This document shows positions 32,010 to 45,985 of a DNA stretch of 62,977 nucleotides, piece by piece. Origin of the DNA: Paludibacteraceae bacterium (GTDB taxonomy: Bacteria > Bacteroidota > Bacteroidia > Bacteroidales > Paludibacteraceae); NCBI GenBank assembly GCA_017558065.1, contig JAFYWK010000018.1, positions 1-62,977 on the forward strand, read 5' to 3'. The position numbers and the translations under genes were made by a program. The notes under the pieces are model-generated. The model was given only the letters and a program-made list of their open reading frames with translations. It was not told the origin of the DNA and searched no databases. Positions within the stretch are counted from its first letter, which is position 1; each line of letters begins with the position of its first letter.

Positions 32010-32064
32010 ATTTGCCCGTATTTTTGTTACCAAGAAATTGTTGTCGATTATTTTATTTCCCGCA

Positions 32065-32096
32065 CAAAATTACTACTTTTTCTTCACATATGCAAA
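32065..32096 (-). promoter_or_regulatory. Promoter for the GNAT gene
   Basis: Minus-strand TTTG (32096-32093), 20 bp, TAATTTTG (32072-32065). Confidence 0.7.
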
Positions 32097-32153
32097 TACA
32101 ATCAATTTTCTTCCCTATTTTCCGCTACTCTTCCGTTATCAATTACGTTACAT

Positions 32154-32221
32154 ATACGATAGATACACGATAGATATACGTTAGATATACGATAGATAAC
32201 ACTATTTATACCGTAGGTATA
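32154..32221. repeat. 4 x 11-bp repeat followed by a palindrome
   Basis: ATACGATAGAT, ACACGATAGAT, ATACGTTAGAT, ATACGATAGAT (32154-32197), then the hairpin TATACC-GTA-GGTATA (32207-32221). It lies upstream of the GNAT promoter. Between it and 32340 I see only a GCCCCAA/TTGGGGC hairpin (32267-32286). Confidence 0.85.
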
Positions 32222-32350
32222 GCATATAGATAACGCTTTACTACCTCTTTGTCCATTAGCCCCAAATCATATTGGGGCGCTTGCCTATCCGCCACCTGTT
32301 TTGCTTTTGCTAGTGGTCTGGCAAATATCCCTACCTTTACACTCTACACC

Positions 32351-32379
32351 AAAAAAATCGCCCTCCAAGGCGATTTTTC
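32351..32379. terminator. Bidirectional terminator-like hairpin
   Basis: AAAAATCGCC / GGCGATTTTT with loop CTCCAA. It would stop any transcript entering from either side and insulates the RNA locus that follows. Confidence 0.75.
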
Positions 32380-32410
32380 TTGCTCAATCCAAAATATTTC
32401 ACTACCTTTG
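32380..32410 (+). promoter_or_regulatory. Promoter for the structured RNA and orphan gene
   Basis: TTG at 32380-32382, 20 bp, TACCTTTG at 32403-32410. Predicted transcript start near 32417, more than 300 nt before the next ATG. Confidence 0.75.
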
Positions 32411-32416
32411 CAAACG

Positions 32417-32638
32417 ATTCGGTAAAGCGTTACCCATCACTACATATTTTAGTATAGCGTTATAAGCCAAAACTTGATTATCTGGAACTTCGACAACTTC
32501 AGAAATCATTATTAACTCAAGTACGGTTTATGCACGCTCGCGTTAACAGCGTGAGTTTTCCGTGCATAGATTTGAGTTAATAAGGTAGTCGAAGACCTCA
32601 GATAATCAAATTGAAGCGAACGAAAGTTCACGCTTTTT
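32417..32638 (+). ncRNA. Candidate structured RNA with rod-like fold and terminator
   Basis: Between the promoter and the orphan gene, 32474-32609 folds into one long rod. TTGATTATCTG (32474) pairs with CAGATAATCAA (32599), CTTCGAC (32488) with GTCGAAG (32588), TTATTAACTCAA (32509) with TTGAGTTAATAA (32572), TATGCACG (32529) with CGTGCATA (32561), and CTCGCG with a CGTGAG arm at the tip. A 14 x 4 nt asymmetric bubble sits in the middle. A terminator follows at 32613-32636 (AAGCG/CGCTT plus TTTTT, with GAAA at its tip). It may be an independent small RNA, a 6S-like rod, or an attenuating leader of the gene at 32735. Confidence 0.55.
32613..32638 (+). terminator. Terminator-like hairpin between structured RNA and orphan gene
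   Basis: AAGCG-AAC-GAAA-GTT-CA-CGCTT followed by TTTTTG; stem ends AAGCG/CGCTT with inner AAC/GTT. Nothing further of note is seen from 32639 to the ATG apart from an A-rich leader. Confidence 0.65.
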
Positions 32639-32734
32639 GTATGTATACACGAATAAAAATAACAAACTATAAATCAATAATTTAACGGAGTAAGCCGAAA
32701 ATCCGAAGAAGAGTAGGCAAAAAAACATACTACC

Positions 32735-33490
32735 ATGATTATTCAATTAGTTTCGTTTCCAAAGTATCAGCGTCTTACATCTGCAGAATGTACAAATCGC
32801 ATGGATATTATTTCAATGATTCTTACATCCAGTAATGCTGACTTTATTATGTTTAGCGAGCATGTATTAAAATCTGAGGATGACTTATATGCTTTGTTGA
32901 AATTACGCAAATATAACAAAAACATCACAGCATTATTTGAACTCAAAGAATCAAATGGTTTAAGTGGTAATCGGTTATATTTACTTCAAAATGGTTTTAT
33001 TAGAGAACTTCGTCATCAACTAATTTCAACAGCAGATGAAGTAAATGAAGATACTGTTGATGCGCTATTAAAAGAATTTAAGCGACGTCGACAATTTGAT
33101 GTCAATGGCAAGCGTTTCCTTATAGTTCAATGTGGCGAAAATAATATTTTAAAAGGAACTACAGGATGTGCAGAGTTTCGCCTAAAAGATACCCAACCTG
33201 AACAACATAGTCTATTTGAGAAGTTGCTTAATAATGTAGATATAGTTTTAAATCCTGTACATACTCGTTGGGGAAGATTCGCTAATTTCCTAACTCGAAT
33301 TAGAAAATTTAGTGATAACAACAGATATTGTTTCTCTTGTACACAAATGGAAGGAAATCAACTTCAGAGTGCGAGAGAAAATCCAACACATAATACTACA
33401 CACGTAGCTATGTATAACCAAGAACTGATTACACCCGTCTATACGAATGAAAATGAGAATTATCTAATACAATCATACGAGATAGAATAA
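32735..33490 (+). CDS. Orphan AT-rich gene, possible nitrilase-fold protein
   Basis: 251 residues, markedly AT-rich compared with neighbours, the only plus-strand gene in a 22-kb minus-strand region. I do not recognise a close family. The layout resembles the carbon-nitrogen hydrolase (nitrilase) fold: a possible catalytic Glu42 in ADFIMFSEHVL, a possible Cys133 in GKRFLIVQCGENN, and a late strand-helix DIVLNPVHTRWGRFANFLTR followed by NRYCFSCTQMEG, as in nitrilases. The catalytic Lys is not certain (Lys113 or Lys116). There is no signal peptide. It follows the structured RNA without a second clear promoter. Low GC and isolation suggest transfer. Confidence 0.65.
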   Translation: MIIQLVSFPKYQRLTSAECTNRMDIISMILTSSNADFIMFSEHVLKSEDDLYALLKLRKYNKNITALFELKESNGLSGNRLYLLQNGFIRELRHQLISTADEVNEDTVDALLKEFKRRRQFDVNGKRFLIVQCGENNILKGTTGCAEFRLKDTQPEQHSLFEKLLNNVDIVLNPVHTRWGRFANFLTRIRKFSDNNRYCFSCTQMEGNQLQSARENPTHNTTHVAMYNQELITPVYTNENENYLIQSYEIE

Positions 33491-33614
33491 CATCTGCATC
33501 GCGAAAAGTTCGTGGCAACTTTTTCGCGATGAAAATATAAAATACAAAAATAGGGGCTCAACACCCCTATTTTTTTCGCCTATTATCTCTCAAAACGCTG
33601 TAAATATTGCTCTT

Positions 33615-45911: not shown

Positions 45912-45985
45912 CGCTCCCTCAAGGACTTGAACCTTGGACCCCCTGATTAACAGTCAGATGCTCTAACCGACTGAGCTAAGGAAGC
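45912..45985 (-). tRNA. tRNA-Asn (GTT)
   Basis: 74 nt without CCA. Acceptor GCTTCCT/AGGGAGC, D-arm GCTC/GAGC, anticodon stem TCTGA/TCAGG with loop CTGTTAA (anticodon GTT), T-arm CAAGG-TTCAAGT-CCTTG, discriminator G. All stems pair. Confidence 0.95.

What the first reader, a model, noticed from the sequence alone, without database searches (positions are those of the whole stretch)
32380..33490. Structured RNA directly upstream of an orphan nitrilase-like gene
A consensus promoter, a 136-nt rod with four perfect helices of 7-12 bp and a large asymmetric bubble, and a terminator-like hairpin precede an AT-rich gene with no close family I can name. The gene has no second clear promoter, so either an independent small RNA lies here or the fold attenuates the gene. 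The protein shows a possible Glu/Cys nitrilase-like layout; nitrilase domains are known in some reverse-transcriptase defence proteins (DRT1), although no reverse transcriptase is present. The pair is flanked by terminators and stands against the strand of its neighbours, like an acquired cassette.
Basis: partly seen in the sequence, partly recalled or inferred. Interest (0 to 1): 0.78.

Follow-up and report, generated by a model that had tools for sequence, protein, structure and literature searches.

The report
Phylum-wide leader RNA for exported proteins
The folded RNA before this odd gene is one copy of a large, apparently undescribed RNA family that precedes many different genes, often for exported proteins, in many Bacteroidota, and it probably controls how those genes are expressed.

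Summary
In detail: promoter, strongly folded RNA (z -5.5), orphan ORF, terminator-like hairpins. But the RNA is not tied to that gene. It is a multicopy family: 7 copies in the window's genome, hits in 58 of 295 genomes of the order and 51 of 395 of the phylum. No copy scanned reaches an Rfam 15 family; only the short motif after it does (DUF805b).

Covariation on 38 copies is overwhelming: 98.4% of cells paired, 170 doubly changed cells, 0 of 500 shuffles as high. P2 may be a loop-loop contact. In copies outside the window's close subtype, the RNA's 3' tail covaries with the loop of a small hairpin further downstream (0 of 1000 permutations as high; 32 pair types in 46 of 93 copies). There RNA and gene must share one transcript: a cis leader, not a separate sRNA. 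The window's copy and its 37 close relatives lack this pairing.

Downstream genes carry signal peptides more often than other genes of the same loci (69 of 94 against 108 of 466). The window's nitrilase-like gene is an exception, in a locus whose genes are exchanged. Nothing links it to DRT1.

The parts
32380..32410 (+). Bacteroidota-type promoter: TTG 32380-32382, 20 nt, TACCTTTG 32403-32410; transcript start expected near 32417 (inferred)
   Evidence: kept in L001 and L002. The consensus is recalled
32421..32434 (+). short 5' hairpin GGTAA/TTACC; other copies show other hairpins here (by eye)
   Evidence: sequence, copies
32454..32638 (+). core of the leader RNA. P0 32456-32460/32630-32634; P1 32474-32484/32599-32609; P2 (possible loop-loop) 32488-32494/32588-32594; P3 32511-32521/32571-32581; P4 32531-32535/32562-32566; P5 32536-32543/32549-32556; H2 stem 32583-32586/32595-32598
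   Evidence: alignment A2 and pair counts, converted to window coordinates by hand; own-genome model hit 204.1 bits
32685..32719 (+). DUF805b RNA motif (Rfam RF02914) between the leader RNA and the start codon
   Evidence: 45.6 bits, gathering score 35.6
32735..33490 (+). ORF of 251 aa, possible nitrilase-superfamily protein (E42 and C133 in candidate positions by eye; the lysine is not placed); no signal peptide by the script
33497..33531 (+). terminator-like hairpin after the gene; the like in L281 behind a different gene
33546..33574 (.). second terminator-like hairpin between the convergent genes

Best explanation
The RNA is one copy of a structured 5' leader family found in many Bacteroidota and in no Rfam 15 family. 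Shown by comparison: helices P1, P2 and P3 by covariation, P4 and P5 mostly by one-sided changes. In about half of the copies outside the window's subtype there is also a pairing between the 3' tail and the loop of a small hairpin downstream, as a rule before the start codon (not counted). Likely but not proven: P2 joins two hairpin loops (UGAAA-loop-UUUCA and AGGU-loop-ACCU), and an invariant helix P0 closes the RNA. Inferred: the folded domain senses something (ligand, protein, or the state of the cell envelope) and makes or breaks the tail-loop pairing, which opens or closes the start region of the mRNA. Genes are exchanged behind the leader; many encode exported proteins, and in this window the gene is a nitrilase-like protein.
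For: Covariation on 38 copies that had been found by sequence, not by structure: 53 pairs, 98.4% of cells paired against 89.9 shuffled, 16 pairs and 170 cells with changes on both sides against 10.5 and 47.6, covariation score 0.271 against 0.104, each 0 of 500; 16 of 49 RNAalifold pairs with changes on both sides. P2 alone: 3 of 6 pairs with changes on both sides, 99.6% of cells paired; own partners fit better than permuted ones, 0 of 300, from 8 distinct pairs. Spread: 77 of 101 genus genomes (DNA query), 58 of 295 order, 51 of 395 phylum. Tail-loop pairing, not part of either model: 93 copies outside A2 score 14.17 against 12.16 (sd 0.23) permuted, 0 of 1000; 29 class-level and plasmid copies 1 of 1000. 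46 of the 93 pass a threshold, with 32 pair types; the stem around the loop 9.95 against 8.06, 0 of 1000. Nearest downstream ORF co-directional in 102 of 114; signal peptides in 69 of 94 downstream genes against 108 of 466 other genes of the same loci, Fisher 4e-20.
Against: The window's copy and the 37 others in A2 show no tail-loop pairing (10.54 against 10.55, 524 of 1000), and 47 of the 93 other copies miss the threshold. In one search one of five measures, further pair types, was reached by 13 of 500 shuffles. H1 and H2 have no double change in A2, so the loop-loop reading rests on position and a few compensatory cases seen by eye (L066, L067, L077). H2 permutation tests show nothing. The H1 test outside A2 gave 3 of 300, but a control pair of strands gave 15 of 300. 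Upstream ORFs are also often co-directional (79 of 113). No expression data and no ligand. The U-run could be a real terminator.
Confidence: 0.75

Rival explanations
1. Independent small RNA with its own promoter and terminator; the downstream genes are coincidental.
For: Promoter upstream and a U-run after the hairpin or P0; no tail-loop pairing in the window's copy or its close relatives.
Against: Tail-loop covariation across the U-run in other copies, among them three of the window's own genome (L066, L069, L070); 102 of 114 nearest downstream ORFs co-directional, and signal-peptide enrichment.
Confidence: 0.12
2. Transcription attenuator: the folded domain decides whether the 3' strand CCCACGC-UUUUU ends transcription, for example by pairing with the P5 3' strand GCGUGGG.
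For: A U-run after a conserved strand in many copies; complementarity of that strand to P5 seen by eye.
Against: P0 pairs the same strand with the 5' end in 38 of 38 A2 copies, without variation. The P5 alternative was not tested statistically.
Confidence: 0.3
3. Mobile or recombination element: the structure is a DNA site or the end of a gene cassette (attC-like).
For: Homology between loci breaks near RNA ends: L042 against L002 share upstream plus RNA but not the gene; L027 against L037 and L032 share RNA plus gene but not upstream. An orthologous locus without the unit, L279. Window RNA closer to L025 (94.6%) than to its orthologues (85.0 and 83.4%).
Against: Breaks at a conserved element are expected if homologous recombination uses it. 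The tail-loop pairing speaks for RNA. Terminal repeats, target duplications and recombinases were not searched for; I only read the junctions of L047 and L279 by eye.
Confidence: 0.12
4. A two-part RNA-nitrilase defence system.
For: Adjacency in the window, L001 and L002; weak nitrilase fold support.
Against: The RNA occurs with many other genes; the protein was not found in 392 of 393 order genomes; only a PADLOC match of E 0.019.
Confidence: 0.03

Closest known systems
DUF805b RNA (Rfam RF02914)
   Same: A short cis-regulatory motif of the same 5' leader, 46 nt after the RNA in the window; also after L072 and, below the cut-off, after L066.
   Different: 35 nt and one small hairpin; it does not cover the large RNA. 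Of 7 DUF805b matches in the own genome (6 over the cut-off), 2 follow a clear R1 hit, 2 a weak one (18.4 and 12.5 bits) and 3 none.
Riboswitches and other large cis-regulatory leaders (recalled as a class)
   Same: Conserved multi-helix fold and a separate pairing towards the start codon.
   Different: No ligand known and no common pathway: the genes share export signals, not metabolism.
Palindromic candidate RNAs of Bacteroidetes such as HMP2_1032 (PMC8040213, passages seen)
   Same: Same phylum, four examples of 80-132 bp, one most often near TonB.
   Different: No sequences at hand, so identity could not be tested; three of the four are described there as predicted terminators.

Membership tests
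Any Rfam 15 RNA family (incl. 6S, Flavo-1) | score above the curated cut-off over the large RNA | tested here: not met
   Searches (window; 40 loci): over the cut-off only tRNA, group II intron and DUF805b, none over the large RNA; to E 10 gave only chance matches besides
DUF805b RNA | match over gathering score | tested here: met
   for 32685-32719 only
Cis-regulatory leader RNA | same transcript as the gene and structure-dependent contact with its start region | tested here: inconclusive
   covariation with a downstream hairpin in copies outside A2, not in the window's subtype; no transcript data
Riboswitch | direct ligand binding | not testable with these tools
   none
Nitrilase superfamily | alpha-beta-beta-alpha fold | tested here: inconclusive
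   poor single-sequence model (pLDDT 43.7); first 14 PDB hits nitrilase superfamily, best E 3.8e-4, prob 0.98, but TM 0.30-0.38 and rmsd 8.7-17.5; hhalign uninformative; no Pfam match
Nitrilase superfamily | Glu-Lys-Cys triad | tested here: inconclusive
   E42 and C133 by eye; lysine not placed
DRT1 | reverse transcriptase domain fused to nitrilase | tested here: not met
   251-aa ORF without any Pfam domain
Integron attC cassette | integrase and attC boxes | not tested
   considered from structure and gene exchange only

The most novel reading that the evidence does not exclude
The leader is an address or export-coupling element: a phylum-wide mRNA structure that ties translation of envelope and secreted proteins to the state of the cell envelope or export machinery, into which new genes are plugged, so that unrelated genes become one regulon by acquiring it.
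Probability: 0.15. Interest if true: 0.92.

Novelty: new variant of a known kind. Interest (0 to 1): 0.74.

Why it matters
Bacteroidota are major gut and soil bacteria, and post-transcriptional control of their surface proteins is little known (recalled). A large, multicopy leader that reaches no Rfam family and precedes, by eye, SusC/TonB-type receptors, lipoproteins and other exported proteins would define a new regulon and perhaps a new sensed signal. Several of the genomes with hits are held as one contig, so a culturable host can probably be found.

Tried and rejected
Protein homologues: none in viral contigs or plasmids; phages only at E 0.5 or worse; 2 in genome contigs. hhalign against 13 nitrilases failed because the query has no diversity. 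Extension of H1 by the variable part of P1 looked like a bistable switch inside A2 (0 of 300) but not in the wider set (77 of 300), so I dropped the switch claim. L047 against L001 was first taken for an empty site; it is an inversion. Minimal start-stop ORFs upstream of some copies were not tested. Literature: the listings of searches showed no description of this RNA; I saw passages of three papers only. Subscription papers and supplements (Weinberg 2017, recalled; the HMP2 tables) were not available, so prior mention cannot be excluded.

Counts that are lower bounds: the own genome gives 7 copies alone (39), 4 and 6 under the stricter filters of the broad searches, and scored candidates per genome were capped.

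Sets and dropped rows: 43 copies; A2 holds 38 (L036 repeats L002; L027, L037, L043 and L049 were left out). A2, A3 and A4 hold 116 rows, of which 102 distinct copies were kept. With 28 class-level copies and one plasmid copy this makes 131. L335 was cut at the wrong place by my script and left out. The 93 copies called 'outside A2' include 8 of the same genus (L066-L071, L277, L283), 5 of them among the 46 with tail-loop pairing. Many A3 and A4 copies come from a few copy-rich genomes and are not independent; they were also found by a model that contains P1-P5. In one search the script looks for complementary strands, so its P2 types are complementary by construction: 31 types, of which 6 (9 copies) look mis-assigned and a few differ in length only; its H1 (4 or more pairs in 96 of 102) and H2 (3 or more in 99 of 102) counts have no chance level. 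The tail window was chosen after seeing examples, and permutation ignores relatedness. The signal-peptide rule is home-made. The first control (90 of 378) included spurious ORFs and was replaced.

Full report
What is at the place. The described pieces are there: a Bacteroidota-type promoter, a strongly folded RNA (z -5.51), the Rfam motif DUF805b at 32685-32719, an ORF of 251 aa and two terminator-like hairpins. Rfam finds no family over the large RNA; to E 10 there are only chance matches below the cut-offs.

First surprise: the RNA is swapped while the gene is kept. In two close relatives (L001, L002) the protein is 98 and 97% identical. The RNA core is only 85.0 and 83.4% identical, with its outer helix and P2 replaced by other, again complementary sequences. 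The best match among the other 37 copies of A2 is L025, at another locus of another genome: 94.6%.

Second: it is a multicopy family. As a DNA query the RNA hits 77 of 101 genomes of the genus, 1 to 8 matches in each that has one. A covariance model from 38 copies finds 7 copies in the own genome and hits in 58 of 295 genomes of the order, 45 of 183 genera. A second model finds hits in 51 of 395 genomes of the phylum, 27 of 171 genera. The RNA is also on a plasmid of Rhizosphaericola mali (model score 43.7 bits). It is in 3 of 80 viral contigs that had been retrieved because they match a short pattern. Of 40 loci scanned none reaches an Rfam family over the RNA.

Structure. On the 38 A2 copies, found by sequence, 53 pairs were counted: 98.4% of cells paired, 16 pairs with changes on both sides, 170 such cells against 47.6 in shuffles, 0 of 500; one further measure, the number of pair types, was reached by 13 of 500 shuffles. 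Sliding the partners drops pairing to 23-47%. P1, P2 and P3 carry the double changes, with one pair in P4. P2 lies between GAAA...UUUC and AGGU...ACCU, so its strands can sit in two hairpin loops. A script found 4 or more H1 pairs in 96 and 3 or more H2 pairs in 99 of 102 copies, without a chance level and with some wrong P2 assignments. These stems barely vary: L066 (CAAA/UUUG and GGGU/ACCC), L067 and L077 (UGGU/ACCA) carry compensatory changes, read by eye. Permutation shows nothing for H2, and for H1 outside A2 only 3 of 300 with a control at 15 of 300. The loop-loop reading is likely, not proven.

The RNA is joined to the gene in many copies. The 3' tail before ACGCUUUUU is complementary to a motif a little downstream, in the loop of a small hairpin: AAGUUCC/GGAACUU in L072, UAAACCCA/UGGGUUUG in L337, AGUACC/GGUACU in L074. 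For 93 copies outside A2 the mean score is 14.17 against 12.16 permuted, 0 of 1000 as high; for the 29 class-level and plasmid copies 1 of 1000; for the 38 A2 copies, the window's among them, no signal, 524 of 1000. 46 of the 93 pass a threshold, with 32 pair types, and the stem around the loop also exceeds all 1000 permutations. Three of these 46 are copies of the window's own genome (L066, L069, L070). Permutation ignores relatedness, but the variety of pairs makes descent alone unlikely. This pairing was in neither model. In those copies transcription must pass the U-run for the pairing to matter, so the U-run is not an obligatory end.

What it precedes. Of 114 copies with an ORF after the RNA, the nearest is co-directional in 102; of 113 with an ORF before it, 79 are. 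Of 94 distinct downstream genes 69 have a signal peptide by a simple rule, against 108 of 466 other genes of the same loci (Fisher 4e-20). By eye they include lipoproteins, BspA-like and ubiquitin-like secreted proteins, SusC/TonB-type receptors and one FecR-like protein (names recalled, not searched). The window's nitrilase-like protein has no signal peptide by that rule and is an exception.

The locus. G406 (L279) lacks the unit: 130 bp where the window has 1415 bp between matching flanks. Beside the same small gene G445 (L277) and G430 (L283) have a divergent RNA and another exported protein. G463 (L281) keeps like promoter and terminator sequences but has other genes and no RNA hit. G431 (L042) keeps the upstream part and the RNA but has what looks like an ABC transporter. 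Genes are exchanged behind, with, or without the leader.

The protein. No family match of weight. A single-sequence model is poor (pLDDT 43.7). Its first 14 PDB matches are all nitrilase-superfamily enzymes (7 of them chains of one D-carbamoylase), but only 3 have E below 0.001 and TM-scores are 0.30-0.38. DRT1 couples a reverse transcriptase to a nitrilase domain (PMC13275509, abstract and passages seen). Nothing here ties this gene to it.

Mechanism and limits. I hold the RNA to be a cis leader whose folded domain controls access to the start region. The covariation is shown; the sensing and the direction of control are inferred. The window's copy lacks the tail-loop pairing, and DUF805b may serve in its place (inference). 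Whether the RNA has been listed before under another name, in tables I could not open, remains open.

Noticed in passing
L066, L074, L077, L078, L083, L087, L097 (upstream of the RNA): A motif like UUUGCCUAUGGAA is followed within a few codons by a stop, so some leaders seem to start with a 2-5 codon ORF (by eye).
   Followed up: no
L068, L069, L070, L277, L283: Subtype of the RNA with a long insertion in the P5 loop (211-244 nt in all).
   Followed up: partly
window 32034-33614 and L277, L279, L281, L283, L042, L047: The place between the GNAT gene and the DUF/sigma-factor genes looks like a hot spot of exchanged genes, with an inversion in L047.
   Followed up: partly
L240/L244 (G000:C1:37321-37659): Two DUF805b motifs 304 nt apart, each before a near-identical short reading frame, without a hit to the large RNA.
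   Followed up: no
L327 (NZ_CP044017.1 15021-15177): Copy of the RNA on a mobilizable Chitinophagales plasmid before a gene with a signal peptide by the script and a metallophosphoesterase gene.
   Followed up: partly
L032, L037, L027: What looks like a ubiquitin-like domain in a secreted protein behind the leader, at different loci (by eye).
   Followed up: no
window 45912-45985 (-): A tRNA gene, the only other Rfam match of the window over the cut-off.
   Followed up: no
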